This document shows, one piece after another, positions 20,218-55,039 of a stretch of DNA of 64,000 nt. Numbering within the stretch: the first letter of the stretch is position 1; every line of letters starts with the position of its first letter. This stretch comes from Owenia fusiformis (Eukaryota; Annelida; Polychaeta; Sabellida; Oweniidae), in NCBI GenBank assembly GCA_903813345.2, contig CAIIXF020000011.1, positions 21,001,754-21,065,753 on the forward strand, read 5' to 3'. The notes beneath the pieces were generated by a model, which saw only the letters and a program-made list of their open reading frames with translations, was not told where the DNA came from and did not search any database. Both the position numbers and the translations under genes were made by a program.

Positions 20218-20361
20218 AATGTTCAGAGGACATCGCCACGTCCTGCTCCAGGCCCCGGAGGTGATGCCCCACCCCAAGGATTACCCAAAGAGCCAGAAGT
20301 GATGACGGTGACATTCGCTAAAGTAAATGGTAGCATGGGATTAAGCATTGTGGCTGCTAGG
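20218..20361 (+). CDS. AFDN: afadin exon, start of PDZ domain
   Basis: Acceptor TCTTCAACAG|AATGTT and donor AGG|GTAAGT, phase 0 at both ends. It encodes a Pro/Gly-rich lead followed by EPEVMTVTFAKVNGSMGLSI, the first strand and carboxylate-binding loop of the afadin PDZ domain. Confidence 0.93.
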
Positions 20362-23300: not shown

Positions 23301-26300
23301 AAGTTTTTCTCATTACATATAAAAGCATGGTGAAATAAATTGAAGTCAATTTGTCAGTTGTTTTATTTAAGGGTTATTGGAGAAAGTTGAACTTCAGACT
23401 TTGAAATGTTGTAATTTATAGAATATTGCATGAAACCCATAGAATAGAAGCATTTGGAGGGAATAAAAGCGGCTTGTCTGCTATAACACTTGCAATGCGT
23501 TCAATCATCTTCTATTAATAGTTGGATTGAGGTCTTATTACAAAGTGTAGCCAGTAGAAAGGGGCTGCAGATTTCAAAAATACTAGGAGCTCAAGAAATA
23601 TAACAGGTAGAATTTTATACATTTTATCTTAGTACATTCATTATCAATTATAGATGTCATGGTGTTCTAGGATATATGTCTATTTTGTATATTTAAATAC
23701 ATGTATAATATAATCACCAAGCTTTGCTGCTATGATTAATATAACAGCATTGTTAGAAACACATAATATATCAATTAATTTTCAGTATATTGCTTTTTAA
23801 ATTAGACATTTGGAAATAATCATCAACATTTTGCTTATTCTTAGTTTCATCGGAAAATATCCTGAAATGCCTAACAGGATCAACAAGTCATCCAAGGCCA
23901 AAAATATATGAAGCATTTTTCAAGAAATTTTCCAGCAAAGTGGATATTTATTAACAATGAAAAATGATCATGCAGCAAATTCAATTAAAAAGCAATAAAT
24001 ATCATGACATATGCGTTAACATGACAAAATATCATTCTGTGTTTTCATGAACAAAAATAGTTTTTCATCAGATGATGAACCACAAAAGGTGACTCAGTGC
24101 GTATAAATGTGAATTTGGGGGTAATTAATATTTTGATTTATTATCATCTTTAGCATGGTAGGACTTTTCAAATAAAAAGACCTGAAGTTTAGACCACAAA
24201 AAAGTTGTGGGTTGATCCGACCTTTTGAGGTGCTTAAAAAGGGAACGCTCATTAAATTAGCATAGCAATTGAAAAAACATGTTTGAGGGTGAAAGCAATA
24301 TATTAAGTTTGTCAGCGTAAATGTGTTTGATCAAACTGAGACTATTTGCTCTTGGTTCATATTACTGGTCGGATAAATAAGGGTTATGCACTGGGAGGTT
24401 TTGGATACAGGGAATATCCCGAGGGATATACAATATATCTTCCCGAGGGACCGAAGGGACCGAGTGAAGATGTATTGTCTATCCCAAGGGATATTCCATG
24501 TATCCAAACCGACCGTGCATAACTGGTGTATGTCATACTTTTTTTAACTTTTTTAAACTTTTGAAAAATTCCCGGGAGCGGGATGGATATATTATATCTG
24601 CCCGCATTTGGCCTGGAGCGGGACATATACAATATATCCTGCCCGCTCCTCAGATATGATATATATTCCCGAGTGATATCTACCCCAAACCCACTTAAGT
24701 ATGAGATACTATAGGATAGTTACTGCAAACTTCACTTAAGGTAGGAACTAATATTGAACGGTTTGGTATCTGTTTATGATTCAAATAACAGTCACAGACA
24801 GTGATTTTTTAACTGAATTTTTATGAACTGCGAGCACCCAGATTAAGAGCCATGAGCAGCATTGTTTTCCCATAAAATAGTAGGATTTTAACTGGTAAGT
24901 TAGATTGAAGATTATCACATTATCATATTCCATAATATAAATGTACTATAGTGCATAGTAGTGCTATAGGATCATAATAGTTTAAACAAAATGGTATCTA
25001 GTTGGGAGGTTTCTCCTTTTAAAGACAAAGGGTGTGGTATTTCCTTCAGGAGACTTAAGATATTTTTACTTACGGGTTCTTATCATGTTAGAATACCTCA
25101 GGTTCATAAACACCCACACAAATAAAAGTACTATCAACAATAAATCTGTTCTTGTTAGTCGAGAATATATCATCCTTTCAATAAAGATATATTGGCTCAC
25201 TTTTATCAATTATTTATTTCTTCGATATTTGTTTATAATCCAATTGGAAAAGGGTCATCCATCCTCTAAACTCAATTAATTTGACAATCCTTTTAAGGCG
25301 GTTTCTCATTATGAATTATATTACAGAGTGATCAGTTTAGAAAAATACTGATGCAAAATAAAGATTTTTTGTGGATAACTTCTTAGTGAACAATGGTGAC
25401 ATATTGTTATAGTCTCCAAATTTTTTGTGGATGGCGGTTGGTGTTCAGCAGTCAGTATCTGTAACAAATGGCAGGTGGTAATATTTTGCATGTTAATGGC
25501 TTGTTGACTTTATGTTATCTTTAGTATCTGGGGGAATATCTAAAGGAATTAAGGTAGCAGATAGCAGAGTCAGAAAAACTAGAATGGATTTTTATCTGAT
25601 ATCCACCATCTCGAAAGCATCTGAATATCCCCCTCACAGACCCTCAGACATAACATACACAAGTACCCACCAACACCAACATGTAATTCAGTTCACACGT
25701 TCAGTCATCTAATAACGGTTATTTATTTTTGTATATTTACAGGGAGATCGTCAGGAGGAGAAGGGAATTTACATTAAGTCTGTTGTCAAAGAAGGTGCTG
25801 CTGATCTAGTAAGTAAACAAATATAACAAGATGATCTTCTTGACATGTGAATTGTAATTTAACATTATATCAATGGGGTAAAATGTCAGGTAAGTACATT
25901 ACTACTTGACTGGAAATTGAATATGGCAAACCCTCTATTACATGAAGAAAAATAAGAAACTGATTTTATGATAGTAATTTGCATACAATTAAACATATTT
26001 TACGATAATTGTTGTTTATGTTCCAGGATAAACGGCTACAAGCAGGAGATCAACTTCTCGAGGTTGATGGCAAGAATCTGATTGGAAAGACTCAAGAAAA
26101 GGCTGCGGAGTTGATGACCAAAACTGGACATAACGTCACGTTAAAGGTCGCAAAGCAGGCTGCCATCTATCAGGGACTTGCTACACTATTAAGTCAACCT
26201 TCCCCAGTCATGTCAAGAGGTAGGTTTGGGATAGGGGGTTACGTTGTGTGTAATTTAGTGATCTGCCTTGTGGTTACCTTGCCCAGCAGACTAAAAAGTA

Positions 26301-29300: not shown

Positions 29301-32300
29301 AGAATAGATGATATACGTCGTCAAACACCCGATAGGAGAAGTGAATCGCCAAACTTGCCCCCACCCCCAGAGATTCCCCCTCCCCCTGCAGATCTTGATG
29401 GATATGTTGATGATCTCCCTCCCCCACCTCCACCACAGGATGGTGGCTCCCCCTATGACCAACAACGAAGATTTGAAATGGAACAGCGGAGACATCAGGA
29501 GCAGCAGAGGGACCGTATGGCCAGCTACGGAGGTGATCACCGAAGACCTGAGCCCCATGGCTACCAACCTCCCCCTAGCGCACCCCCAGGTGGACCACAT
29601 GGTCGCCAACACCCCGAGCCTATGCGCCCAATTGAATCTCAGCAACCATTATCACGCGGTCCTCCAACAGTGCCACCTAGTGGCCCAAGAGCAGACAAGG
29701 ATGTTATCCGTGATATCAACGAAATAAATAAACTTGAAAAAGACTCAATGGGCTCATGGAATCCCAATGCCGTGGCAGGTCCTGGGGGACAGGGACCATC
29801 GCTACAGGTGAGGATGTTGGCGGAGGCTATGAGGACAGGGGCGCCCCCTCCCTCTCCTTCACCCTGGGAGAAAGAGGAAAAGGAAAGGAAAGAGAAGAAG
29901 GTCGCAACTGAGATGGGACAGATGAGAGATGAGGAGATTGGGTTCTTGGCAAGCAAGCAGTTCAGGTGAGTAATGTGAAGGATAAAATTCAAGTTGAACA
30001 TGTTTAAAATAGAAAGTAGAATAATAGTCTATATAGAACGAATGAAATAAACAAGTACATGAAATAAACATGTACATGACATATTTGAAGTGTGTTGATA
30101 GTAAATAAGAAAAGTGGTTAAATATTTTTGATCTTAAAGTGGCTCTCTATTATTCAAAATTATGACATCACAATTGCACGTTTCAGGACACCAGACGAGG
30201 AAGCTCGATTACAGAAGTTGCGACTTGACCAGGAGTTCCAACGTCGTCTGGACGAATCAAAGAATGATGATGATGAAGAAGGAGATAGTGATTCAGAATT
30301 GACAGATAGAGCCTCGGTAAGTTATGATCACAATCTCATTCAGCCAGCATACATTCTCCCATCAAAATGTAATGAAAATAGAAAACTTCCGCAAAACTGA
30401 AAATCATTGGTTTTCTGTTACTTGAGGTCTTTTGAACAGTAGTCTCAAATGAATAGGGATTGACTGGTTCATGAATTGATTAGAATCTAAATGGACAATC
30501 AACCTCTCAAAGTACTCCGTACATACAGAATTTTCTCTGCAGAGAACATTGGGCTAGACTGTACTGAGAAACACATAAAGTTGAGCCATTTTTTTATCTA
30601 TTAAACTGAACTCAAAATTGTGGGCAAATAATGCAAGATATGCGCAAAACTGACCCCCAAACAATATATGCAAAATCTAGCTTGAATAACTCTTACTTAC
30701 ATTACTAGCAATAATTATTAATAATTATGATAATTCAATACACTCTTTACTGTCTGGGTGCTCTTTCTAATTATTTTACAGTGGTTACTTTTTTCAAAGA
30801 CAAGTTTGAACTTCAAGGTAATCTTTCCATTAAGTGAGGGGTCAAGGTACTCATTTAAACCTCTCATGTTTCTTTGATTGTTTTTGACAAAATTGAACCA
30901 CTGTGATATTTTTAGAAAGGCAAGCTGCAGAAGCGAAATTGCAAATATGATTATGTACTGAAGGTATGATTTCATAATTAATGGCCCCAAATAGCTCGCT
31001 GCTTTTGCATTAAACATACTGTGTATACTGATTTTTGCAAATTAAGCTAGTATATCCATTGGCCATCCAAGTAGATTGATTATTTTTGCAATTTTTCTGA
31101 AATTCCTTTTTACTGTTAAAATGGCCCAGATGTTAACTCTCCTAATATATGCAAAATTATCAATGTGTAATGTGCACCGTCAGTATACTTTGATACTAAG
31201 CTCATTTTCTGTTTATATAAAACGTAATGGAAATTCAAAGTCTTAGTTGTGCAAGTCGTAGGTTGTTCTATTTCTTTTAATTTGGCATATGCTAGGATTG
31301 AAGACTGGGCCCCTTTATACACATTTTCTAAAGATCTCTTGGCCATGAGGTCTCACATTTACCCAACAGTCTTTTTCACCTGATCTGTTTCTTTAATCAT
31401 TTTTATCACATCAATTTCTTGTATTGTCAATGGATGGTGGCTATATTGGTTGGTGCATACAAGGGTAGTTTAGTTGAAGGGTATGGTGTTTTGTCCTTAG
31501 GGTCGTAGGGAGCTACTCCGTAGAATGCAAGAAGACCTTGCCCAGAGAAGGAAAAAGAGTGAAGAAGATGAACAACAGAGACGTATAGATGACTTCAAGG
31601 CTGAACAAGAGAAGACAGAAAGGTAAAGGGAACATTTATGCCAGCCTGAATTACAAATGTTGTATTTTGGTTGATGGAACAATTTTGATACCCCTTTGAT
31701 ATTTTAACATTGTAATTCATGTCTATTTATCTATATACAAACTGCCAGATTCAGACTCTTGTGTTAAATTAGGAAACATGAATTTATTTGAATAATTAAG
31801 AAAATTCAATTTAATTCAATGATTTTAGCTTAAGTTACTCAAATCTGAACAAATCTGAAATCTGTAATCTGAACAAGAAAATGGAATTCATTGTAAAACT
31901 ATACCTAGAAATCTGAATGATGCTGAATAATTTCGAATATTTTATTACATCCTAATTTGAATATCTGTTTTAAAAAAGCTTGAATTGTGCTGAATATAGT
32001 TGTATTACTTCCATATAAAATTCCAGACAAAACAGGCGATTAGAACAATTTGAGAAACAGCGGGAACAAGAGAAACAAAAGATGGCCGCCAAACAAGAGA
32101 AAAAGGAACGAGAGCATGAAGAATTTTTACGGAAACAAAGAGTGAGTTTCAACTGACGATTGTGTATTTTTTGTTCTTCCCTTGTTGTACATTTTCATAG
32201 TGTCATTTGTAGTGTTAGTTCATTGGATTTTTTACATTCAGCTAAATACACTCTAATCAAAAATTATAGAATTTTCGCTGAAATATAAATAATATTTTGG

Positions 32301-35300
32301 TTTGGGGTGTATTTGTCACTGCATGGTTAACAGTTTGTGCTTCACTAAATGACTTTGGGAGATGGATGCTATATTTGTTTTTTATTTTATATTCCCTGTT
32401 AATCTTGTAGTGTGTTATTTACTGTTTACTGTTACTGTTCCCTTTAGCATTTCATATGGTGCTTATTTTTCCCTTAATCTTGCAACAGTCTTTTCATGAC
32501 TGATATTTTTACAGATAGAAGAAGAGCGTAAAGAGCGGGTAAGAGTCTTATCCTGAAGGGTTCAGGTTGCTCGGTTACTACAATTACAAAGTGGCTTCTT
32601 AAGTTAATCTAGCTTGCTTAAGAAATAAAAATATTCAATTATACTTAATATAAACTTTCTACAGGGTGTTCACTAAGTAGTTATACCATGTTTCCTATAT
32701 CAAAACTCATGATCAAAATGAACCAGCCTTATCTTGTCTATAGGTTTTTTTAATTCAACACACATTTTAACTGTTCATAAGCCTCTCATTAACCTCTGTT
32801 AACTTATGTATGTGGATGAATTTTATAATGACTTGTAGAAAGTGGACACCCTGTATGATTACTTACAGTGAACACCCTGTAATAACAAATATATGCTAAT
32901 AATCTAGTGAAGGAGGTACATCAATCCCACAGTGTATTTTGATTAGTTTTGGGGCATTGTTGGATTGATTGATCTCTTATTCTTCATTCTTAAAACAGAA
33001 CTGGACATTTAGGTGATGCTTGGAGTGGCTTATGCTACTATTACTAATCCTGGGTTGTCATAAAATTTGTTATATGCTATACTTAAAGGAGGGGTGTACC
33101 AGTCTGGCAGGGTTTCATGATACACCCCCCCCCCTATAAACGAATGTGTCTATTCATTCATTGTTCATTATTATGTTGACTAATATTTTTAATCAAATGG
33201 AGTCTCAAAATGCTTAAACAGGAATTTCTGAGCTATAATAGACTGCCCCTTTATATGATGATAATATTCATGTACATGTATTTGCTTTATTAATCTGTTC
33301 TCTCAGGAGATTTCTGACCCTGACAGACCCCTATTCTATGTGTTGCTTCATGTATGTTGACTAACCTTATTGTTCAGCCAGGTCCACATCTCGGAATCAT
33401 ATCTCATTCCCAGTGTGTTCAGCTCAATTTTCTCTTATCAGTAAACAATGTTAAAACATATTTTACTTCATTAGGTCAAATTATTATGATAACACTTTGA
33501 ACACTTACATATGTAAACCTATACTAGGTACATAAGTATTATAAAACGAAACTAATCAGCACCCTGGTATAGATAGTGCTAAGTTCCACTAATCGTATTT
33601 ATGTTAAGATAAGGCAAGGAGAGACGTACATGGTTAATGTCTCACAAATTGAGATCTCATGGTAATTTAAACATCCATTACTTAACTCAAAGGCTTCTGT
33701 GCATTCTCAAGTATTGCTTTTTCTAGAGGTTGTTATAGAGACAAATCAAGGAAAAACACATTCTTACAAGATTCTGATAAATCATTATTGGATATTTTTG
33801 TTTTATCATATTCAGTAAATGCACAGCAGATCTCTCCCAAGCAAGAAATTCTCTAAACAACCCAATATGTTTATTTTATGAATTGAAACATGTAAACCCC
33901 ACAGATTAGTCCCTGTATTAGAATGTGTGACCCCCTATGTTGTATAGGAGATGAGAGAGAAACAAAGGAGAGAGGCAGAGGAGCATAAGAAACAGCAGCA
34001 GCAAGAGGAAGAACGTATCAGACAGAGGAAGATGGAAGAGATTAGAAAAAAGAAAGATTTAGTAAGAATCTGTTTCTCCACTAAGCTCAAGCATTGTGAA
34101 CTTCATCAGAATTCACTTTAAGATAGACAATATTCCTAATTTCTGTTGGACTGTTGAATTTAGTACATCAATCGATGTCAGTGCCACCCCCCCCCCATTT
34201 CAGACAATCAGAATTCCTTTTTAAGTAGCTGATAAACATTCCTTTTAAACATTCCTGATACCTCTCATGTTTCAGTATTGTCATCTATGCCCCTGCATTT
34301 CTCTAGTTATGTCACCATCTCACGTGGTGATTGTAACAGTCTCCAACTTTTTTATGGACTGTGTTTGACATTTAGCGTTCACAGTTTGATGTCTATTATA
34401 CGAGGGGTGATCCAAAAGTCTTGGACGCCCCGCTCTAACTTTGCTATTTTTTAATATAACTACATGAAACTTTCAGATAATAAAGATCAACATCTTAACA
34501 ATTTTATGTATAAGTTTCAACAGAAAATGATATATTTTAGGTACTGTTCTACATATCTTTTAATACCGGGTCACTGCTACCCGGAACGGTATTTAAATAT
34601 AGCAAATCATGTCACAACTGTTATAATATGGCAAACACTTTAGGTGCAGGTGCACAACCTAACACCAGCCATGATATGAGAGAATTTTCGATTTCCAATC
34701 TGAGTGTCATCTGCCATCATCATCTTCACATATTAAGACATACTTTTCAACATATTTTCCACGAATTTGAACACATTTTCATACCACTTTACCAATGAAT
34801 GGAAGACATTTATGAAACCGTCATTGCTTCTGTGATACAAATGCTGCTGGAGTGCTACTCTAAACCTCATTCAATGAGTAAAAAACATTTTCTTTCAACC
34901 ATCCTTTCAACTTGGAGAAAAGGAAGAAAATTACATGGAGCCATAGATACACTGTATCGTGCATATGGTAGCTGCTTAAGGTCAATAACAGTAGTATTCT
35001 TTGTTCCACTTTGATTTCTTTCGTGTTCTGCCTTTCAGCAGCCATCTTGCAGCAAAAATGATACCAGAATGAGGGTTGCTTGTCTGATGGCATTTTCTTA
35101 GAATTTGACATGTGCAGCCATTGTCATGTGACATTATAATTAAAACACAATTAATTGGTTGCCTAGTAACAAAGGAAGTAAACTTACATGGTTTAACATT
35201 CAAAATTCAAAGAAATATAGTGGTCAAGACTTGCGAAACAAGTGAAATGGCAGTAACATTTAAGGCTGAAAGTTGCCATGTGCGAATACCGTTCCGGGTG

Positions 35301-37104
35301 GCAGGGTCCTTGTATTAAAAACTATCTAGAAAACTATACAAAATATATCATTTCTCCATGAAATTAATACACAAAGTAGTTAGGTTGTTGGTCTTTATTA
35401 TTGGAAAGTTTAAAGTAATTTTATCAAAAACCAACAAAAATAGAGCAGGGCGTCCAAGACTTTTGGATCACCCCTCGTAAATGGCAGGTGGTGAAATTTT
35501 TCCTGTTGATGCCTTGTGTCCCTTGTCAGAATCACTTCTCACAAATTTTAAGTAAAGTGCTTCTGTAATGTTATAGCTGTTATGTAATAAAATGAACATG
35601 TCATTTATTTGCACTGATGTTTTGTCACTAATAAGGCATCTATTAATTATTACAATACACCATCAACGTGATAATTTGAAGACAATGAATGGCTTTTGGA
35701 GATATCTGAAACTATCATTTTTAATAACACATTTTGTGTATATTTCAGGAACGTGAACAACTCCGGGAGATGCAATTAGCTCGAGAAGCTGAGGAACGCC
35801 AACTACGCGATCAAGCAAGGCGACAAGAAGAGGAATACACCCGCGAGAAACTCTTGTTAAGTACGCAGACTAGGGAAAATAGAATGAATGAAGATATGAG
35901 ACGAATTGAGAAATATGGACATTATGAGGTGCAAGACCAAGGCAATAGGCCACCACAGGCCCGAAGCCCAAACTATGCTGGCCCTAAAGCTACCCTTAAT
36001 GCCCCTCCTCCCCCAGAGAGGAAATCATCATATGAGTATACAAATCCTATGAACATGTCCCAGTCTCAACAGCCTGCTCCCCAGCAGCCTAGTGGTAGTC
36101 AGTCTATGCCTTATGCCTATGTTCCTCCCCACTCAGGTGGTCCCGGGCCTGCCACATCACAACCGGCCTACTCATCACTCCCCGCCAGTAGCTACGGCCC
36201 CACTGGGAGTTATGCCCCACAGGGACAGCAGAGGGCCCAATCTCAGTACTCATCATCTGGATCGAATGAACCACAGACCACAAAGTACTATGGGAATTAT
36301 CCACCTCATCCTCCGCAATCAGGAGCTCATCCAGCTCCTCAGCCTCACCCCTATAACCCCAACTCTCAGCTGTATACCCAGCCGACATCACAGCCTCAGG
36401 CATATCAGCCACAGGGCTATAACCCTCCACAAACCCCCACATCCTCACACTATGACCCTAGTCAGCAGCAAAGAGGCCCGGGGAGAAGGCCAGAGCCTCA
36501 ACAACCCCCAAGGGAGCCCCCTACAGCTGCCACTAAAAAAAGTGTGTCATTTGACTCAAGGCCTCCCATGGATATGGTGGAGAATAGAGGGCCCCAGGGA
36601 CAAATGGGGGACAACCGAGGTCCACAGAGGCAAATTATGGACAATAGAGGCCAACAACCCCAGGGGCAGATGATGGATAATCGAGGGGGACCTCCAAGTG
36701 GGTATCCCTACCAGCAACAAGCATACCATCCTGCGGGAGGCTACAAAGAGGATACCCCACCCCCTCCTCTACCTACTAGCCCCCCTCCCAATGACACTGA
36801 CCCACGTGGGTATGGGGCAGAAAATATGCCACCACGAACCCCTGAAAATAATAATGATGCAAAATATGAGACTGGACCTACCCCCAGTATCATAGGAGCC
36901 CAAGAAGTATATAGAGACCCTAGACAGAGACTGTTGGCTGCTAAACAACAAAATCCAAGAAACCCTGGCCAAGACAAAATGTCATTTAGGGATAAAATGA
37001 AAATGTTCGCTACCGAAGCAGGCGAGGATGGCACTCCTAGGGAAAAATCAAAAGTGTCAAGTAAACAACGTTCTATAGAGACATCTATAAATGGACAGAG
37101 GTAG
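20218..37104 (+). CDS. AFDN: afadin (AF-6/canoe), 3' part from the PDZ domain to the stop
   Basis: Afadin is an actin-linked adaptor of cell-cell adherens junctions; its PDZ domain binds nectin tails. Eleven exons splice in frame: 20218-20361, 25743-25808, 26027-26219, 26945-27103, 28396-29965, 30187-30316, 31501-31622, 32027-32141, 32515-32538, 33948-34061 and 35749-37104. They sum to 3993 nt, 1330 residues plus stop. The PDZ domain (MGLSIVAAR, GIYIKSVVKEGAAD, LQAGDQLLEVDGKNL) is followed by the afadin-typical ATLLSQPSP, KPRPQSE and SKSQEQ. Then come a Pro-rich linker, an acidic/basic coiled coil, a Pro/Gln/Tyr-rich tail and the conserved IIGAQEVYRDPRQR and DKMKMFATEAGEDGTP. The Ras-association, FHA and DIL domains expected upstream are not found in the window, so the gene is partial. 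The stretch after the PDZ is longer than in vertebrate afadin, mainly from low-complexity tail. Confidence 0.93.
20362..24380. other. afadin intron, no further feature seen
   Basis: A 5.4-kb intron runs from 20362 to 25742. This first 4 kb is AT-rich with no recognised exon or transposon end. The rest of the intron carries the hairpin repeat at 24381 and a GTCACCACC copy at 25383. Confidence 0.6.
24381..24524. repeat. long hairpin repeat, copy H1
   Basis: Left arm: GGTTATGCACTGGGAGG, TTGGATACAGGGAATATCCC, then GAGGGATATACAATATATC. The core is GAGGGACCGAAGGGACCGAG. The right arm is the inverted counterpart of the left with scattered mismatches (GATATTCCATGTATCC, then CGACCGTGCATAACT). Relatives are at 49720, 50273, 51082, 51405 and 52221. 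H6 (52221-53252) matches H1 in reverse orientation. No coding function; mechanism of spread unknown. Confidence 0.8.
24556..24712. repeat. module linked to hairpin H1, found inverted at 51876-52030
   Basis: It holds CCCGGGAGCGGGATGGATAT, TATCTGCCCGCATTTGGCC and an imperfect palindrome around GGAGCGGGACATATACAATA. The reverse complement at 51876-52030 is nearly identical and also sits next to a hairpin copy, so hairpin and module moved or were copied together. Confidence 0.75.
25383..25505 (+). repeat. GTCACCACC repeat family, interior-deleted copy in an afadin intron
   Basis: Contains GGTGACATATTGTTATAGTC, the GGCGGTTGGTGTTCAGC segment, CTGTAACAAATGGCAGGTGG and the TTTTGCATGTTAATGGCTTG end. 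Confidence 0.8.
25743..25808 (+). CDS. AFDN: afadin exon, PDZ middle
   Basis: Acceptor TATTTACAG|GGAGAT and donor CTA|GTAAGT. The 22 codons GDRQEEKGIYIKSVVKEGAA(DL) form the PDZ beta2-beta3 region and start of helix 1. Phase 0 at both ends. Confidence 0.95.
26027..26219 (+). CDS. AFDN: afadin exon, PDZ end
   Basis: Acceptor TTCCAG|GATAAACG and donor AGAG|GTAGGT, ending in phase 1. It encodes DKRLQAGDQLLEVDGKNL, helix 2 (TQEKAAELMTKTG) and the afadin-specific AKQAAIYQGLATLLSQPSP extension that directly follows the PDZ in this family. Confidence 0.95.
26945..27103 (+). CDS. AFDN: afadin exon, linker after the PDZ
   Basis: Acceptor ACAATTTCAG|CGTTCC continues the phase 1 codon. The donor is CCTA|GTCAGT, found because only this site joins in frame to the next exon to give SSKSQEQIRS, matching the conserved SKSQ motif of afadin. 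The frame that stays open past the splice site into the intron is a different one. It encodes a Gln/Gly/Lys-rich linker with KPRPQSED. Confidence 0.88.
27483..28196. mobile_element. non-autonomous hAT element in an afadin intron, 8-bp target duplication
   Basis: The 698-bp body at 27491-28188 starts TAGGGGTGGGACGG and ends CCGTCCCATCCCTA, a 14-bp inverted repeat with one mismatch. It is flanked by a perfect 8-bp direct repeat GTAATTAT (27483-27490 and 28189-28196), the hAT signature. Sub-terminal regions carry repeated CGAACCGAACCG and TTCGGATC motifs, typical transposase-binding arrays. No transposase reading frame remains. Confidence 0.92.
28396..29965 (+). CDS. AFDN: afadin exon, large Pro-rich linker
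   Basis: Acceptor TATTTTCAG|GCTCAA completes a serine codon; donor TTCAG|GTGAGT leaves phase 2. The 1570-nt exon encodes SKSQEQIRSTSTSNL and two further SKSTSNL/SISQPNL-like Ser-rich motifs. It continues with long Pro-rich stretches (NLPPPPEIPPPPADLDGYVD and DDLPPPPPPQDGG, candidate SH3, WW or profilin ligands) and ends in a Lys/Glu-rich segment leading into the coiled coil. Vertebrate afadin has Pro-rich DLPPPPPPP segments in the equivalent place. Confidence 0.93.
30187..30316 (+). CDS. AFDN: afadin exon, start of charged coiled coil
   Basis: Acceptor ACGTTTCAG|GACACC, donor TCG|GTAAGT. It encodes TPDEEARLQKLRLDQEFQRR then LDESKNDDDEEGDSDSEL, aligning with the vertebrate afadin region in which an EFQ/WQFQKRL helix precedes an acidic run. 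Starts in phase 2, ends in phase 0. Confidence 0.93.
31501..31622 (+). CDS. AFDN: afadin exon, coiled coil
   Basis: Acceptor TGTCCTTAG|GGTCGT, donor GAAAG|GTAAAG, ending in phase 2. It encodes GRRELLRRMQEDLAQRRKKS and more Glu/Gln/Arg-rich helix. Confidence 0.92.
32027..32141 (+). CDS. AFDN: afadin exon, coiled coil
   Basis: Acceptor AATTCCAG|ACAAAA, donor AGA|GTGAGT. Encodes RLEQFEKQREQEKQKMAAKQ and continuing charged helix. Starts in phase 2, ends in phase 0. Confidence 0.92.
32515..32538 (+). CDS. AFDN: afadin microexon, 24 nt
   Basis: A 24-nt exon encoding IEEERKER lies between TTTTTACAG and the donor CGG|GTAAGA. It is phase 0 on both sides, so it can be included or skipped without changing frame. 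Its eight residues continue the charged helix of its neighbours (…FLRKQR before, EMREKQRREAEE after). The strong donor and polypyrimidine tract support it, but eight codons cannot be proven from sequence alone. Confidence 0.72.
32660..32855. mobile_element. MITE with CAGGGTGT ends in an afadin intron
   Basis: Left end TA-CAGGGTGTTCACT, right end AGTGGACACCCTG-TA, with TA on both sides and about 190 bp between. A second partial right end (CAGTGAACACCCTGTA) follows about 25 bp further on. The ends resemble those of the fold-back element at 53357-55300. Confidence 0.65.
33948..34061 (+). CDS. AFDN: afadin exon, coiled coil
   Basis: Acceptor GTTGTATAG|GAGATG, donor TTA|GTAAGA, phase 0 at both ends. 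The 38 codons include EMREKQRREAEEHKKQQQQ and EEERIRQRKMEEIRKKK. Confidence 0.93.
34399..35479. mobile_element. mariner/Tc1-type element, decayed
   Basis: TA-CGAGGGGTGATCCAAAAG begins a terminal inverted repeat. The right end, CTTTTGGATCACCCCTCG-TA, is its exact inverse, and similarity continues for about 190 bp on each side (both arms contain ACCCGGAACGGTATT). The body is 1077 bp with TA duplications. It is too short for an intact mariner and holds only fragments of a transposase on the minus strand. It lies in an afadin intron and inside an older repeat. Confidence 0.9.
34860..35203 (-). pseudogene. mariner transposase relic
   Basis: Two overlapping minus-strand frames keep recognisable pieces of the C-terminal catalytic domain. 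One reads IIMSHDNGCTCQ, around the second catalytic Asp of the DD34D triad (normally HDNAR or HDNAP). The other reads FFLFSKLKGWLKE and FYSLNEV, which follow the third catalytic Asp in the family. That third Asp is lost here (HVIFFLF where CDFFLF is expected), and a frameshift separates the pieces. Non-functional. Confidence 0.8.
35749..37104 (+). CDS. AFDN: afadin last exon
   Basis: Acceptor TATATTTCAG|GAACGT; the exon runs to TAG at 37102-37104. It first completes the coiled coil (EREQLREMQLAREAEERQLR). A Pro/Gln/Tyr/Ser-rich low-complexity tail follows, with three tandem repeats of an M-x-DNRG-x-Q type motif near 36590-36690. The exon ends with the family-conserved IIGAQEVYRDPRQRLLAAKQ and MSFRDKMKMFATEAGEDGTP. 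The terminal SSKQRSIETSING is not a recognised PDZ ligand. In vertebrates the C-terminal region of long isoforms binds F-actin. Confidence 0.95.
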   Translation, partial: EREQLREMQLAREAEERQLRDQARRQEEEYTREKLLLSTQTRENRMNEDMRRIEKYGHYEVQDQGNRPPQARSPNYAGPKATLNAPPPPERKSSYEYTNPMNMSQSQQPAPQQPSGSQSMPYAYVPPHSGGPGPATSQPAYSSLPASSYGPTGSYAPQGQQRAQSQYSSSGSNEPQTTKYYGNYPPHPPQSGAHPAPQPHPYNPNSQLYTQPTSQPQAYQPQGYNPPQTPTSSHYDPSQQQRGPGRRPEPQQPPREPPTAATKKSVSFDSRPPMDMVENRGPQGQMGDNRGPQRQIMDNRGQQPQGQMMDNRGGPPSGYPYQQQAYHPAGGYKEDTPPPPLPTSPPPNDTDPRGYGAENMPPRTPENNNDAKYETGPTPSIIGAQEVYRDPRQRLLAAKQQNPRNPGQDKMSFRDKMKMFATEAGEDGTPREKSKVSSKQRSIETSINGQR

Positions 37105-48724: not shown

Positions 48725-49236
48725 CAGAGGCCTCATTATCCGGTCGACGCACCGCAAATCGCAATCGCAACGTAAATATTTAGCGAATCGTACGCAAAAC
48801 GATATTATGAGGTCATCTCAAAGGCACTCTAGCGCAAATTCATTGCCGTTTTGCGTCTTTAGCGCAAATCGCAGTTTTCTTATTACACGGTAGACGCATC
48901 GCTATTTTCATTTCGCATCGCAAATACACTGCTAACCCCACGCAAATTGGTATTATGCAGTCATCGCACAGTTGCGTCCACGTAAATCCATTGATTTTTA
49001 TCTCGGAAACTCCACTTTATTTGCGGCATCCCTGACCCTGCCGCATTATAAATCGCAAACATATCATCAAGAATCTTGATAGTTTTCCTATTTAAATTAA
49101 CATTATCGTTGTAGAAATCTAGGAAGTGCCCTTTGAGACATCCAACTAAAAATAGGTTGAAAAACATTAGAGACACAAGTAACCAAAACTTATCAAAATC
49201 AAGTCTGAAAGTGCACGATTATGCTACCTTGGTTTT

Positions 49237-49620
49237 GTGAAATCTATAATAAATATCACAATTCCATTTCGCAAATATCGTCTGCTAACATTAAAATTAT
49301 TAATTATTAATTATGTTCACAATAGAAGAGGTTTACGCTTATTCAGAGACAGGAGTCAGCCGTTAGAGATGACTGACGATGAGATATTAAACAGATATCG
49401 CATGCCGAGGCCACTCATTCTTGAGTTGATTAATATATTAGATGGGGATCTAGCGTCAAGAACAAGGAATCCTCAGGCAATTCCATGTCAGCTAAAAGTA
49501 TTCATTTCATTACGATTTTATGCTACAGGTTGAATGCAAATGATAAATGGAGATATATTCGGGGTATCCCAACCTACTGTTTCGAAAATTGTTGCTGAGG
49601 TATCGGCAGTTTTCTCTAGG
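49237..49620 (+). pseudogene. HARBI1-type transposase, N-terminal relic
   Basis: The frame reads MTDDEILNRYRMPRPLILEL, INILDGDLASRTRNPQAIPC and LKVFISLRFYATG. An in-frame TGA at 49531-49533 follows, and the same frame continues MINGDIFGVSQPTVSKIVAE up to a TAG at about 49621. This is the conserved N-terminal block of Harbinger transposases (FPR...L...RS.AISP..QVL..L.FYATG...GD..GISQ..VSR). The DDE catalytic domain that should follow is absent; hairpin repeat H2 begins at 49720. Confidence 0.88.
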
Positions 49621-49719
49621 TAGGCTATATCAGTCGGACTAATTACAAAGACACCGTGTCTTGTTTTCAAGATGGGCTGCCTTCCAGTGACAGATCTAGA
49701 TTTTCGCAAGATATATATA

Positions 49720-49886
49720 GGTTATGTAGTGGGAGGGATTCAATATGGGTTTTATTATGATGGACAATATGATATTTACCGAGAGCCCGGAGGGTCAGAG
49801 GGAAATACCAAATTGTCCCTCACAATATGTGAAATATCAAATTGTCATGAGGAATAAACCCATATTTAATCCCGACCAGTAAATTA
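49720..49886. repeat. long hairpin repeat, copy H2
   Basis: The outer arms GGTTATGTAGTGGGAGGGAT and TCAATATGGGTTTATT face inverted partners at the right end (GAATAAACCCATATTTAATC then CCCGACCAGTAAATT). The interior contains a second, smaller hairpin around GAGAGCCCGGAGGGTCAGAG, with part of one arm repeated. It is more diverged than the other copies. Confidence 0.75.
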
Positions 49887-50272
49887 GCTTTTTATTCCAT
49901 GATATTCATAACTGTCTTCAAAAATGGTATATTTAATCAAGAAAATATGACTTAGCTTTATGATATTTTTAAATATAAAAAAATTATTGTACATGTGTAA
50001 CATAAACGCATCAACATCAAAACATTCAGCAATACGTAAGCATTTTTGTCTGTGTCAGAGCGATGATGATAAAACTGGAATTCGTTTTTCACATAAGAAC
50101 ATCATTTTAGCATGCTATATCGACCCAACTGATTGAAGAGGAAGCTTTGTTTGGCAAAAATTTTCAATATGATTTTTTCTCAATATTAAAAATATTCCCG
50201 GTTATTCATCGGGAATTAGTAGTATCATGGGATAAATAGAGATTATCCTATATGAGGTTCAGGATATATAAG

Positions 50273-50412
50273 GGTTATGTACTGGGAGGTTTTGGATATG
50301 GGGTTTATCCAGAGGGAGATATGCATATCTACCTGAGGGACCGTAGGGACCGAAGGTAGATGTTCATATCTCACGAGGGATGAACCCCATATCCAAACCG
50401 ACCGTACATAAC
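50273..50412. repeat. long hairpin repeat, copy H3
   Basis: Left arm GGTTATGTACTGGGAGG, TTGGATATGGGGTTTATCC, AGATATGCATATCTACC. Core GAGGGACCGTAGGGACCGAA. Right arm GGTAGATGTTCATATCTCAC, GGATGAACCCCATATCC, CCGTACATAAC. Outside it lie GGGATAAATAGAGATTATCC on the left and TTTATCCTATACC on the right, extending the pairing. Confidence 0.85.
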
Positions 50413-50439
50413 TGCTTTATCCTATACCAAGTAGAGTTT

Positions 50440-50590
50440 TCTAATTTCCTTTCGATTTTTTCAATTTTTTTTCACATTTTTCTAATTTTTTTCAATTTTT
50501 TCAATTTTTTTCAAATTTAAATTTTTTAAATTTTTTTTCACATTTTTTCTTTTTTTTCAATTTAAAAAAAAAATTAAATTTTTTTTTCGA
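50440..50590. repeat. T-rich low-complexity tract
   Basis: Runs of TTTTTTCAA and TTTTCACA repeats, then mixed A and T runs. No further content. Confidence 0.85.
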
Positions 50591-50997
50591 AGCGGGAAGA
50601 TATGCGCTGGAGCGGGAGATATGGCGGGAGATATGGAGGTTCAGGATATGGAAACCTCAATACGGGATATATCTTACCAACTTATCTCCCTAAAACTCTA
50701 CTTGGCATAGGATAATGAACTATACGATGATCTGTTTATCCCATACCAGTCTTGGTCATTTTGTTCACGCTGTTCAATTGGCCGGAGTTCAGAAAATGTC
50801 CAACCAACCGTAAGAATTCATTTAGAATAGCCTGATTTTCAGATATTCATCCACATTTATTTCTGAAATCCTTGTTTAACAGGGATACGCTCATTTCCTT
50901 CCTTCAAACAGATCGCGATTGTCTGCCTTTTCTCCATTAACGTTTACAGTAATTATGCGCATGTTACAAAAATGAACCAATATGCGAACGGCGATTA

Positions 50998-51076
50998 TGA
51001 CGTCAGCGGGCAGATATACTATATCTGCCCGCTCAGAGCGGGACGTATAGCTATATCTGACCGCTGATGAAAATAT
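50998..51076. repeat. GCGGGCAGATAT palindromes
   Basis: CAGCGGGCAGATATACTATA followed by TCTGCCCGCTC is an almost perfect palindrome, directly followed by a second weaker one, GAGCGGGACGTATAGC with TATCTGACCGCTG. The same block recurs at 51822-51866, and a relative is at 51313-51350. Confidence 0.85.
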
Positions 51077-51081
51077 ATAGA

Positions 51082-51225
51082 GGTTATTTAATGGGAGGTT
51101 ATTGATACAGGGTATATCTGGGGGAAATACAATATATCAACCCGAGGGACCGTAGGGACCGAGGGTTGATATATTGTATTTACCGAGGGATATACCCTGT
51201 ATCAAAAATCGAGCATTTAATAACT
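51082..51225. repeat. long hairpin repeat, copy H4
   Basis: Left arm GGTTATTTAATGGGAGG, TTGATACAGGGTATATC, AAATACAATATATCAACCC. Core GAGGGACCGTAGGGACCGAG. Right arm GGGTTGATATATTGTATTTA, GGGATATACCCTGTATCAA, GAGCATTTAATAACT. The arms are about 85 per cent self-complementary by eye. Confidence 0.88.
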
Positions 51226-51312
51226 TATTTATTCTATACTTAGTAGATTGTGAGGAATAATAGCAAAGTCCCCCGGCTCAGTATCTACTCCCTGAATTTA
51301 TGACGTCGTAGA

Positions 51313-51350
51313 TCTGCTGAGCGGGAGATATATATATCTCCCGCTCACGT
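51313..51350. repeat. perfect palindrome GCGGGAGATATATATATCTC then CCGC
   Basis: A 24-bp perfect palindrome with flanking CTGA and TCAC partly extending it. Related to the GCGGGCAGATAT palindromes on either side. Confidence 0.85.
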
Positions 51351-51404
51351 CACATATATTCCCGCATGTTATATACCTATAACACTACTAAGTATGGAAT
51401 AAAT

Positions 51405-51552
51405 AGAGATTATCCTATATGAGGTTCAGGATATTGGGATTATCCCGAGGCCAATATAATATATCTGCCCGAGGGCCGTAGGTCCCGAGGGTAGATATAT
51501 TATATTGGCCAAGGGATAATCCTAATATCCTGAACCGACTATAGGATGATCT
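51405..51552. repeat. long hairpin repeat, copy H5
   Basis: Left arm GATTATCCTATATGAGGTTC, AGGATATTGGGATTATCCC, GGCCAATATAATATATCTG. Core GAGGGCCGTAGGTCCCGAGG. Right arm GTAGATATATTATATTGGCC, GGGATAATCCTAATATCCT, GAACCGACTATAGGATGATC. The arm sequence differs clearly from H1 and H4, yet the two arms match each other. Outer ends GGAATAAATAG and CTGTTTATCCCAT also pair. Confidence 0.88.
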
Positions 51553-51821
51553 GTTTATCCCATATCAATCACATTGTTCAATTGGCCAAAGTTCAGAAAC
51601 TTAGCAACAAACAGTAGAATTATTTTTAAATATTCATGTACAGTTTTGTATTCTTGTCCGTAGCCGGATTTTCCTGTTCAAATCTTTGATTATTACCGGG
51701 GCATACTGCTCCTACCCTTCTTTAAAGCATATAACAGATCGCGATTGTCTGCGTTTTTCTCCATTGTTGTTTACAGTATGCGAACGTTACAAAAAAGGAC
51801 CACAACGGGAACAGCGATTAT

Positions 51822-51866
51822 GACGTAGCGGGCAGATATACTATATCTGCCCGCTCTGAGCGGGAC
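51822..51866. repeat. second copy of the GCGGGCAGATAT palindrome block
   Basis: TAGCGGGCAGATATACTATA followed by TCTGCCCGCTCTGAGCGGGA, nearly identical to 50998-51040. Confidence 0.85.
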
Positions 51867-51875
51867 GTAAAGCTA

Positions 51876-52030
51876 TGTATCTCATACTTGAGTGGGTTTG
51901 GGGTAGATATCACCCGGGAATATATATCGTATCTGAGGAGCGGGCAGGATATATTGTATATGTCCCGCTCCAGGCCAAATGCGGGCAGATATAATATATC
52001 CATCCCGCTCCCGGGAATTTTTCAAAAATT
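51876..52030. repeat. inverted copy of the module at 24556-24712
   Basis: Reverse complement of the afadin-intron module: GTATCTCATACTTGAGTGGG, CCCGGGAATATATATCGTAT and GAGCGGGCAGGATATATTG occur in mirrored order. The module lies next to hairpin copy H6, as its counterpart lies next to H1. AT-rich filler follows to 52208. Confidence 0.85.
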
Positions 52031-52220
52031 TAAAAAAGTTTAAATATCAAAAGTTTTAATTTTTTAATTTTAAAATTAAAATATTTTAAGTTTAAATGTT
52101 ACAATTTCATTGTATTGAACAAAAAGAATATTACGAAAATGTTCAATATAAATATCTTGTCATCTGAAAAAGGTGGAAAAGGTTATATCTACCCTAAACC
52201 CACTCAAGTATGAGATACAC

Positions 52221-53252
52221 CAGTTATGCACGGTCGGTTTGGATACATGGAATATCCCTTGGGATATACAATACATCTTCCCTCGGTCCCTTCGGTCCCT
52301 CGGGAAGATACAGGGGCGTAGGAAGGTGTAAATTCAACACTACGCCAAAAATCCCGCCAAAAATATGAAACAATTGTGTCAATATTCTATATCAAAACGC
52401 CTATTTTATGCTCGTAAAATGTCATTTTATGAAAACAGAGATTTTAAGCTTGCAATGTTTTTCACAACCTAAATGTGAACGGAAATACTAAAGCGATGCA
52501 TTTGTATGGGTGATTGGTCATACGTATAGGTTGGCGTTTCGATTTTATATGCAAGCTTTAAATCCCTGATACCTTTTTAATGTGCTTTAAAATGTTCGAA
52601 TGATTTTCATCATTTAAAATCACCTTGGAAAGCCTGTCTTTTAAATCTCGACACAAATCATTCTCACTTTGCTAATGCAACCTATGCAGACAGAGCCTGT
52701 GGGAAATATTGGGTGCGGAGCAAATGAGCGGAGGGTGCGGAGCTAACGGTCATTTTTGAATTTAAATTTGGGATATTTCTGAAACTAAGCCGTTTTGGGA
52801 CTTCAAATTACCAAGATATGTGTATTTGACACCAAATATCAATACAATTGTCAAAATAGTAGCGCAATTCATTCTATAGCGACGCAGTGTGCCTTAAACC
52901 TTTCCAAGACCTATATATTTTGAAATTATCCTTTTAATACTGAGTCCCCAGCATTCATAAAAAATGGTGTTCAAGGTACACTATCTATACAAATTATTTT
53001 TGCATCTTGGAAGCCAGGCAGTATCTGTGTGATTTTATAAAAATTCGGAAATGTTTTTCAGATATGAGCCCCCTCTAAATATTGGGTGCGGAGGAGCTCC
53101 ATAAACGTACCATAAAGAACATAGGAAAATTTTTATTCTCACTTTTCAACACTACGCACTGGCGTTTTGGCGTACATTGTTCCTACGCAACTGAGATATA
53201 TTGTATATCCCTCGGGATATTCCCTGTATCCAAAACCTCCCAGTGCATAACC
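52221..53252. repeat. long hairpin repeat, copy H6, split by an insertion
   Basis: 52221-52310 and 53199-53252 together form one hairpin copy nearly identical to H1 in reverse orientation (AGTTATGCACGGTCGGTTTG at the left edge, CTCCCAGTGCATAACCC at the right). The break falls at GGGAAGATA, and the paralogue H1 shows the undisturbed sequence across that point. Confidence 0.88.
52306..53198. mobile_element. hAT-like non-autonomous element with 5-bp target duplication
   Basis: The 883-bp insertion at 52311-53193 starts CAGGGGCGTAGGAA and ends TTCCTACGCAACTG, inverted with two mismatches. The 5-bp direct repeat AGATA flanks it, and hairpin H1 (24381-24524) carries the same sequence without insertion and with a single AGATA, confirming the duplication. 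GGGTGCGGAG repeats occur near both interior edges. No coding frame seen. Confidence 0.9.
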
Positions 53253-54011
53253 CCTATATCTGCCCGCTGATGAAAATATAAGTTTTTACAAACCGGCTTT
53301 ATGTACCCGTAACACGTCCAAGTATGGGATAAAAGTTTTTACAAACCAGCTTTATGTACAGGGTGTTCAAAAAAAAAACGCAACCCAAAGAAATCGCTAT
53401 ATCTTGGAAAATACTGATCCAATTATGTTCATATTTTCAGGGAAGAAAGAAGAGACTTTGTATGTATAGCCCCTGTTGTTTGTTAGGTGTAAAACATGAT
53501 ATCTTGGACACTTGCTCAAAAGACATTTGTACTAGCAAAATACGAAAAACATGAATGGAAAATCACTATATCTTGGAAAATACTAATTCAATTATGTTCA
53601 TTTTTTCAGGAAAAGAAAGAAGAGACTGTGTATGTATAGCTCCTGTTGTCAGTAAGTTTTAAAACATGATGCCTTGGACACCAGCTCAAATGACAGTTGT
53701 ACTAGGAAAATATGAAAACGCAGTCAGAGGTGACTGCCACAGCAATAAAACCAAATAACTTTCTAACCATGGTGTTTTGGCACTTCAGATTTGGCACAAA
53801 TTATCCTCATTCAATGTTTGGTGAATTTGTGGAGTTTCATCAAAATTACTCCAGGGACTTTACAGTCATGGTCAAAATGGGTTCTTAAGTCTCCCTGAAC
53901 CAGGGCATTTGACTGCGATTTGAAAGCATTTCAATCATAACTGTAAAGTCCCTGAAGTGATTTTGATTTCACTCTACAGATTTACCATACAGTGAATGAA
54001 GATGATTTGTA

Positions 54012-55039
54012 CCAAACAGAGGCGTAGCTAACCCATTTTGCGAGTGTACGCCCGTATGATTTCCCGGTTTTATCAAAATTAACAAAACGATGGTTCCATA
54101 AAATAGGAAGATCCCGGGTGTTCAGAAGATAGGGGACACACTAAACAGATTAATTCAATGAAGGAAATATGTATTGTTTGATCATTTTGACATAGCTTTT
54201 TAAAGGGATTGAATTAACTTTATTAACAGATAATATTCGGGAAACAAAATAGACAGATTCTATAAAATCATGCAATCGGCGATCGAAGCCGTCTATAAAG
54301 GCGATTTTATTTTTTAGGCTACCTAAAACTGTATGTATGAGGCTCATTGTTTTAAGCTTTTGTGGTCATTCTCCATGAAATATTATTATTTTTCTGTGTT
54401 TGTTTTTATCTAGCTCACAAGATGATTAACAATAAAAGAACAGTTACACGACCGTTTCAACTCCATTTCGGATCTTAACAATCTGTACGTGATTCTATAG
54501 AATAAATTCTATCTTTCTGTTTTTTTTGCATTTGCGAACATGTCAATAACAGTATCAATGTTTATATCCTGTTCCCTATGGATATGTATTATGGCCAAGG
54601 AAGAAAGTCTTTCCTCGTTCATTGTGGAACGCAAGTATGGCTTAATGCGTTTCAAACTGCTAAAGCTTCGTTCAGCCACGCAAGTGGATACTGGCAATGT
54701 TAGCAGCTGGACCAAACACGTGTAGACACCGGGGTAAAGAGGCTGGGGGGTCTGTTGAATAGTGTCAATAAGAGTTGCTGGGATGTTCCCTTGAGCAACT
54801 TGTTGCCATTTATGGCTCCACCGTGTTACTTCATTTTGAAGCTCTTGTACATCTCCAGCCTCAAGGTCTGTTTCGAATTCGTCGAACAAGTTCCCAACGT
54901 TCAAATTTGGCAGATTGCCTGGAATCTTGGTAAAATATTTATTTTTCATCACAATTAATCAGGTAAATTTTATTTTTTCTTAAAATTTGAGAGTACGCCT
55001 GGGCGTACTTGGCGTACACGTAGCTACGCCACTGCCAAA
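54012..55039 (-). mobile_element. hAT-like element with transposase C-terminal fragment, 5-bp target duplication
   Basis: The 1018-bp insertion at 54017-55034 starts CAGAGGCGTAGCTA and ends TAGCTACGCCACTG, one mismatch. It is flanked by the direct repeat CCAAA (54012-54016 and 55035-55039). The opposite arm of the surrounding fold-back element carries the uninterrupted sequence, so the insertion and its 5-bp duplication are certain. The right sub-terminal region repeats GGCGTAC motifs. It carries one minus-strand transposase fragment. Confidence 0.92.
54509..54952 (-). pseudogene. hAT transposase C-terminal dimerisation domain fragment
   Basis: 147 residues with no internal stop. The C-terminal half reads PGVYTCLVQLLTLPVSTCVA, ERSFSSLKRIKPYLRSTMNE and ERLSSLAIIHIHREQDI, the hAT dimerisation signature (LxxPxSxxxxERxFSxLxxIKxxLRxxMxxERLxxLxxIxIHR). 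The N-terminal half (PNLNVGNLFDEFETDLEAGD) is less typical. The BED finger and catalytic domain of a full transposase (usually above 600 residues) are missing, so this is a remnant that cannot act alone. Confidence 0.9.

What the first reader, a model, noticed from the sequence alone, without database searches (positions are those of the whole stretch)
49720..53252. Hairpin repeats whose arms covary between copies
Five copies here (H2-H6) and one at 24381-24524 (H1) share one architecture: two roughly 70-bp arms around a GAGGGACCGTAGGGACCGAG core. The arm sequence differs between copies. H1 has GATACAGGGAATATCCC with ATACAATATATCTTCCC. H5 has GATATTGGGATTATCCC with CCAATATAATATATCTG. H3 has GATATGGGGTTTATCC with AGATATGCATATCTACC. 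In each case the opposite arm of the same copy carries the matching complement. Observed: within-copy complementarity exceeds between-copy similarity. Inference: either the arms are repeatedly homogenised inside a copy (hairpin-templated repair or fold-back replication), or a long double-stranded structure is selected while its sequence is free to drift, as in a structured RNA or a small-RNA source. I know of no named family with this core.
Basis: partly seen in the sequence, partly recalled or inferred. Interest (0 to 1): 0.85.

Follow-up and report, generated by a model that had tools for sequence, protein, structure and literature searches.

The report
Jumping-DNA hairpins with paired stem changes
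The covarying hairpins are the ends of a large family of small, protein-less jumping DNA elements that look like rolling-circle transposons; the two stem arms changed together between element lineages but not within single copies, a known phenomenon on an unusually large scale.

Summary
H1-H6 are terminal hairpins (about 145 nt) of roughly 0.4-0.8 kb non-autonomous elements with thousands of relatives in this 498-Mb animal genome (core: 2023 hits, reversed control 5; hairpin end: 2888, control 2). Turned round, the typical element is: 5' inverted repeat, body, inverted copy of that repeat, large 3' hairpin, then T. Empty sites show no target duplication. This is the layout of Helitron2/Helentron rolling-circle elements and their DINE/HINE derivatives. 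No Rep/helicase partner with these ends was found.

Between 10 lineages, 25 of 55 stem pairs have two-sided changes (shuffles 10.9). Within five subfamilies (114 copies, 6660 pair-cells) there are 313 one-sided changes and no private compensated pair; 8 compensated cells trace to 2 lineage-shared changes. Covariation thus arises in transposing source lineages, as expected if the folded strand is needed for transposition. Four of 120 copies carry an inverted core or swapped outer arms, a recognised trace of template switching, so arm homogenisation happens but is rare.

Drosophila DINE-1 stem-loops already show stem change with kept pairing. New here: hairpin size and the within/between-lineage contrast. 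No evidence for a structured RNA.

The parts
24378..24710 (-). H1 element. Hairpin 24382-24523 at the low end; inverted repeats at about 24528-24540 and 24690-24709. Strand is given in Helitron orientation (hairpin = 3' end).
   Evidence: fold; coordinates; boundary pattern
49718..50236 (-). H2 element (diverged type without the core). Hairpin from 49720 to about 49886; inverted repeats 49891-49904 and 50223-50236 (short 14-nt match with one or two differences; weaker evidence).
50237..50268 (-). Left remnant of an H5-type element (TAGAGATTATCCTATATGAGG...) into which the H3 element has inserted; a short right remnant follows from 50716.
50269..50716 (-). H3 element. Hairpin 50273-50412 with core 50335-50354; inverted repeats 50416-50436 and 50696-50716.
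51078..51403 (-). H4 element. Hairpin 51082-51224 with core 51144-51163; inverted repeats 51228-51246 and 51385-51403.
51404..51569 (-). H5 element, hairpin end. Hairpin 51406-51551, inner inverted repeat 51554-51569. The far end was not found by script; 53318-53333 is a candidate.
51876..53256 (+). H6 element, opposite orientation. 5' inverted repeat 51878-51896, inner copy 52199-52217, hairpin 52221-53254 interrupted by an insertion.
52313..53188 (.). About 0.88-kb insertion inside the second arm of the H6 hairpin, with short inverted ends (GCGTAGGAA / TTCCTACGC).

Best explanation
The hairpins are the 3' terminal structures of a diversified family of non-autonomous, Helitron2/Helentron-like (HINE/DINE-like) transposons. 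Shown: sharp boundary at the hairpin side; an asymmetric inverted-repeat pair, one copy at the far terminus and one just inside the hairpin; insertion without target duplication, with T next to the hairpin end; thousands of copies in discrete subfamilies; strong stem covariation between subfamilies and none that is private to single copies. Inferred: a Rep/helicase supplied in trans moves the elements as single strands, and the folded 3' hairpin marks the end of the transferred strand. Only hairpins that still fold give rise to new copies, so pairing is kept in source lineages while the stem letters drift; copies that no longer transpose decay at random. Template switching between the arms during DNA synthesis occasionally inverts the loop or copies one arm onto the other and may supply some of the paired changes.
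For: Architecture: inverted-repeat pair in 20 of 28 extended elements by script (a 21st, L089, only through a 3-mismatch chance match), 2 more by eye (L015, L004); 6 without. Boundary: of 140 sampled loci 118 have TA directly before the hairpin end and 116 of these have A before it, i.e. T after the 3' end in Helitron orientation. Empty sites: for L119 the letters were read in two of the 40 listed places, giving ACATATA^TCTTT with no duplication; for L136 (39 of the 40 listed places) and L151 (1 place) alignment lengths fit the same element length; L021 fits against a repeat seen elsewhere. Covariation between lineages: 25 of 55 pairs two-sided, shuffle mean 10.9, slid versions at most 8. No private compensation within subfamilies. 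Core inversion with arm conversion: L006, L101, L132; rearranged arms in L157. Helitron proteins are present and intact-looking in this genome: 58 PF14214 matches, many in open frames above 2500 aa. Precedent: DINE-1 stem sequence differs among species, read as compensatory maintenance, possible rolling-circle terminator (PMC2374699, passages); compensatory changes in two Helitron2 relatives (PMC3627910, passages).
Against: No Helitron copy with these ends was found: termini matching the H family are absent from the flanks fetched for 8 Helitron copies, 2 of them on the 3' side only, and their true ends were not located. Near one of them (C5) lies a 26-bp H-end fragment, not a terminus. The hairpin (about 145 nt) is far larger than the 7-11 nt stems reported for DINE-1. 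The loops are not more conserved than the stems (column identity 0.855 against 0.843), so nothing shows that a protein reads the loops. L093, inside a tandem repeat, fits the no-duplication model only with a 2-bp length difference. Several lineages carry a standing mismatch and still amplified (H1, H3, C types), so pairing is not strictly required. The 10 lineages are not independent (three close pairs).
Confidence: 0.72

Rival explanations
1. Template switching (hairpin-templated repair) is the main source of the covariation: one arm is periodically rewritten from the other, and selection for pairing is weak or absent.
For: 4 of 120 copies with inverted core or swapped outer arms, with tract conversion in L006 and L101. 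Template switching is known to homogenise arms and invert spacers (PMC8604942, passages) and to create and maintain hairpins (PMC8794818, passages). At standing mismatches some copies show a restored pair, a few of them private (L127, L081). Many between-lineage pair changes are transversions such as U-A to A-U.
Against: No private compensated pair in 114 copies against 313 one-sided changes, so the rate after insertion is low. H4 shows a two-step route: older copies (CTACCC/GGGTTG) carry a mismatch at the base that is paired again in young copies (CAACCC/GGGTTG). Restored pairs are mostly shared by lineages and may be ancestral.
Confidence: 0.3
2. A structured RNA or small-RNA source (hairpin RNA) is selected.
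For: Long hairpins with covarying stems are what such genes look like; lineages keep pairing.
Against: No Rfam match in the window at gathering scores. Copies within subfamilies decay without compensation. The hairpin sits exactly at the end of a mobile element. Thousands of dispersed copies. No RNA data were available to test it.
Confidence: 0.06
3. The repeats are ordinary MITEs or foldback elements (terminal inverted repeats moved by a DDE transposase).
For: High copy number, short, non-coding, AT-rich target with TA next to the hairpin end.
Against: The hairpin is at one end only; the two element ends are not inverted copies of each other; the inverted-repeat pair is asymmetric. L119 has no target duplication, and H1-type far ends are followed by AGATAT or GAACAT rather than TA, which argues against a TA duplication.
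Confidence: 0.1

Closest known systems
DINE-1 / HINE (non-autonomous Helentrons)
   Same: Non-coding; subterminal inverted repeats, one near the 5' end and one just inside a 3' stem-loop; T-rich insertion; stem sequence differs between lineages with pairing kept (PMC2374699 passages; PMC4067079 passages).
   Different: 3' hairpin about 145 nt with three stacked stem modules instead of stems of 7-11 nt; autonomous partner not identified; covariation between lineages of one genome rather than between species.
Helitron2
   Same: Asymmetric terminal inverted repeats with the 3' copy directly upstream of the 3' hairpin; no target duplication for several families; compensatory changes noted in two relatives (PMC3627910 passages).
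   Different: Reported ATIRs of 8-15 bp with the 3' copy 20-30 bp from the end; here the hairpin puts it about 145 bp from the end. The 5' hairpin was not examined.
Template-switch evolution of hairpins and inverted repeats
   Same: Inverted loop/spacer and arm homogenisation in single copies (PMC8794818, PMC8604942 passages).
   Different: Rare here (4 of 120 sampled copies) and not shown to cause the between-lineage covariation.

Membership tests
Helitron2 / Helentron non-autonomous element (HINE, DINE) | Asymmetric terminal inverted repeats: 5' copy at the terminus, 3' copy just upstream of the terminal hairpin | tested here: met
   20 of 28 extended elements by script plus 2 by eye; 6 without; window H1, H3, H4, H6 clear, H2 weak, H5 far end not found
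Helitron2 / Helentron non-autonomous element (HINE, DINE) | 3' terminal hairpin | tested here: met
   Folds; boundary directly outside the hairpin. Much larger than reported.
Helitron2 / Helentron non-autonomous element (HINE, DINE) | Insertion without target duplication, T-rich or A/T site | tested here: met
   L119 read letter by letter, L136 and L151 by alignment length, L021 against a repeat; L093 differs by 2 bp inside a tandem repeat. 13 of 16 joined flanks were searched; 3 gave bridging hits.
Helitron2 / Helentron non-autonomous element (HINE, DINE) | Autonomous Rep/helicase element with the same ends in the genome | tested here: inconclusive
   58 PF14214 matches; flanks of 8 copies inspected, none with these ends; termini of those copies not located
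Helitron2 | 5' terminal hairpin involving the 5' ATIR | not tested
   not examined
Canonical Helitron (Helitron1) | 5'-TC and CTRR-3' ends with a hairpin about 11 bp from the 3' end (definition passages) | tested here: not met
   In Helitron orientation the ends read TTTATCC or TGTATCTC at 5' and CCCTTA, CCCCTA or CTCTA at 3'
MITE with TIR and target duplication | Terminal inverted repeats and fixed-length target duplication | tested here: not met
   Ends not inverted copies of each other; no duplication at L119
Structured RNA gene | Match to a described RNA family, or transcription | tested here: inconclusive
   No Rfam match in the window at gathering scores, which does not exclude an undescribed family; no transcript data

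The most novel reading that the evidence does not exclude
The 3' ends of this family are recognised by shape: a modular hairpin of about 145 nt whose stems are free in sequence. It diversifies by template switching between its own arms during single-stranded transposition intermediates, so that one genome holds thousands of dated copies of an evolving DNA structure, with both the paired changes and the inverted-loop intermediates preserved.
Probability: 0.25. Interest if true: 0.65.

Novelty: new variant of a known kind. Interest (0 to 1): 0.45.

Why it matters
Covariation is usually taken as proof of a functional RNA. Here it is found at the ends of a DNA transposon family, so covariation screens of genomes must control for such elements. 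The contrast between random decay within subfamilies and compensated change between source lineages separates selection during transposition from mutation after insertion. With thousands of copies in one genome, the family would let the rate of template switching in a long hairpin, and the route of compensatory change (one step or two), be measured directly.

Tried and rejected
Considered and rejected: (1) a stand-alone hairpin MITE, because in the extended elements conserved sequence continues past the hairpin to an inverted repeat. (2) TA target duplication, because H1-type far ends are not followed by TA and the L119 empty site has none. (3) Ongoing homogenisation in every copy, because no private compensated pair was found. 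(4) My own expectation that loops are more conserved than stems, which failed (0.855 against 0.843). (5) A Helitron partner near the sampled Rep genes, not found; a search of flanks by strong 70-nt folds showed no hairpin of the H kind. (6) Excess repair at standing mismatches: partly lineage-shared, so not decisive. My first inverted-repeat finder only reported hits in one of ten flanks and handled centres poorly; I did not rely on it. One search misplaced the hairpin end in several elements; redo these.

Counts dropped before counting: 10 of 124 classified copies (6 H4, 2 H3, 1 C, 1 H1) were left out for a truncated or rearranged arm; L006, L101 and L157 stayed in. In one search, 18 of 140 loci gave no match to the boundary patterns.

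Literature: six effective searches on Helitron hairpins, template switching, transposon covariation, arm homogenisation and the likely host (minus overlaps) did not list a family with hairpins of this size; these cover only the held open-access library, and no repeat library was searched.
Full report
What is there. The window belongs to an unnamed 498-Mb genome in 525 contigs. Size and twelve large contigs resemble the annelid Owenia fusiformis (505.8 Mb, 12 chromosome-scale scaffolds; PMC9977687, passages); this is a guess, not a test. The hairpins H1, H3, H4 and H5 are confirmed, H2 is a weaker, coreless relative, and H6 is inverted and split by an insertion.

Copy number and controls. The core with up to 3 mismatches gives 2023 hits against 5 for the reversed pattern. 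Exact cores: 58 listed for T/GAG, 155 for the A variant (control 0), 129 for the C variant (control 0). The H5 core with up to 2 mismatches gives 857 (control 0). The hairpin end GGTTATNNANTGGGAGG gives 2888 against 2.

Sampling. I fetched 120 copies through their cores: 40 with the exact T/GAG core, 20 A, 20 C, 20 T/GAA, all from contig C1, 20 H5 core; and 20 more through the hairpin end, all from C1 and partly chosen for unusual ends. The core-based sample is conditioned on an intact loop but not on the arms.

Subfamilies. With the four window copies added, the 124 copies fall into five groups: H4 36, H3 25, C 21, H1 21, H5 21. The hairpin-end sample adds further types (for example L171, L176, L177 and a three-module type L158/L161/L162/L164).

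Within subfamilies. After dropping 10 copies with a truncated or rearranged arm, 114 copies give 6660 pair-cells: 313 one-sided changes (220 break the pair, 84 give G-T, 9 Watson-Crick) and 14 two-sided cells. Eight of these are Watson-Crick and come from two lineage-shared changes (C-G to A-T in six C copies; C-G to T-A in L144 and L145). The other six are not Watson-Crick (L004, L006, L026, three in L157). Independence predicts 4.1 two-sided cells, 1.4 of them Watson-Crick. Copies therefore decay without compensation.

Between lineages. Ten representatives were aligned. RNAalifold predicts 55 pairs, 25 with two-sided changes. Counting on that structure: 93.5% of cells pair (shuffles 81.7%), 25 pairs with two-sided change (shuffles 10.9), covariation score 0.342 (shuffles 0.138), each reached by 0 of 500 shuffles; slid versions have at most 8 such pairs. 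The structure was derived from the same alignment, and three of the ten come as close pairs, so the numbers overstate independence. Own-arm complementarity 0.903 exceeds left-left identity 0.750 and right-right identity 0.735; left and right arm distances correlate at 0.91 over 45 lineage pairs.

Element anatomy. Left of the hairpin the flanks are unrelated from copy to copy; right of it a conserved tail follows. The tail starts with an inverted repeat (TTTATCCTATACCAAGTAG in H3, TTTATCCTATACTTAGTAG in H4, TATCTCATACTTGAG in H1 and C) whose inverse closes the element: 20 of 28 by script, 2 more by eye, 6 not found. Element lengths run from about 0.4 to 0.84 kb. The L119 insertion has an intact empty relative: ACATATA^TCTTT, no duplication. 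L136 and L151 agree by length, L021 agrees by comparison with a repeat, and L093 is 2 bp off inside a tandem repeat. One search finds A before TA at the hairpin end in 116 of 118 loci.

Template-switch traces. Four of 120 copies are rearranged. In L006 the core is exactly inverted and the right internal loop has become the complement of the left one, while the rest of the hairpin is normal; in L101 the interior is inverted and a standing mismatch is gone; L132 has an inverted core with a deletion; L157 has one outer arm copied from the other. Such spacer inversion and arm homogenisation are described for template switching.

Mechanism. Best reading: rolling-circle-like transposition in which the folded 3' hairpin marks the end of the strand. 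The steps for transposition are inferred from the Helitron2 and DINE-1 literature, where the 3' stem-loop was proposed as a terminator and its stem was seen to change with pairing kept. No partner enzyme with these ends was found, although the genome has at least 58 Helitron Rep matches, and this is the main gap.

Verdict. A new variant of a known kind: the hairpin is unusually long and modular, and the contrast within and between lineages is clear. The structured-RNA reading has no support here.

Noticed in passing
window 50990-51070, 51290-51360, 51830-52010, 24580-24680: A second set of short palindromes of the form GCGGGCAGATATA...TATATCTGCCCGC / GCGGGA...TCCCGC lies in the bodies of these elements and as separate repeats.
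   Followed up: no
L015 (with L055), tail of L031: Another hairpin family with a different core (CGAGTGAGCGAAGCGAG-like) abuts H-type elements and begins with the same TAGAGG-like end.
   Followed up: no
L001-L003, L008-L013, L024, L027 and others: Young H4 copies share more than 180 bp of identical flank, so they travel inside a larger composite repeat (with GCGTCTGCGTTGCG... sequence at one end in L009 and L012).
   Followed up: partly
window 52313-53188: About 0.88-kb insertion in the H6 hairpin with GCGTAGGAA inverted ends; related ends are visible in L147.
   Followed up: no
window 49183-49533 and downstream: A fragment that looks like a PIF/Harbinger-type transposase (recalled resemblance; no Pfam match) just left of H2.
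   Followed up: partly
window 54509-54958 (-): hAT dimerisation domain (PF05699, E 5.6e-9): remnant of a hAT transposon.
   Followed up: partly
window about 20059-37104: Exons of a PDZ-containing gene (PF00595 at 26009-26410), resembling afadin by recall only.
   Followed up: no
C158, C500, C337, C6:36040000-36046600: One Helitron group carries tandem repeats of about 1 kb downstream of its open frame.
   Followed up: no
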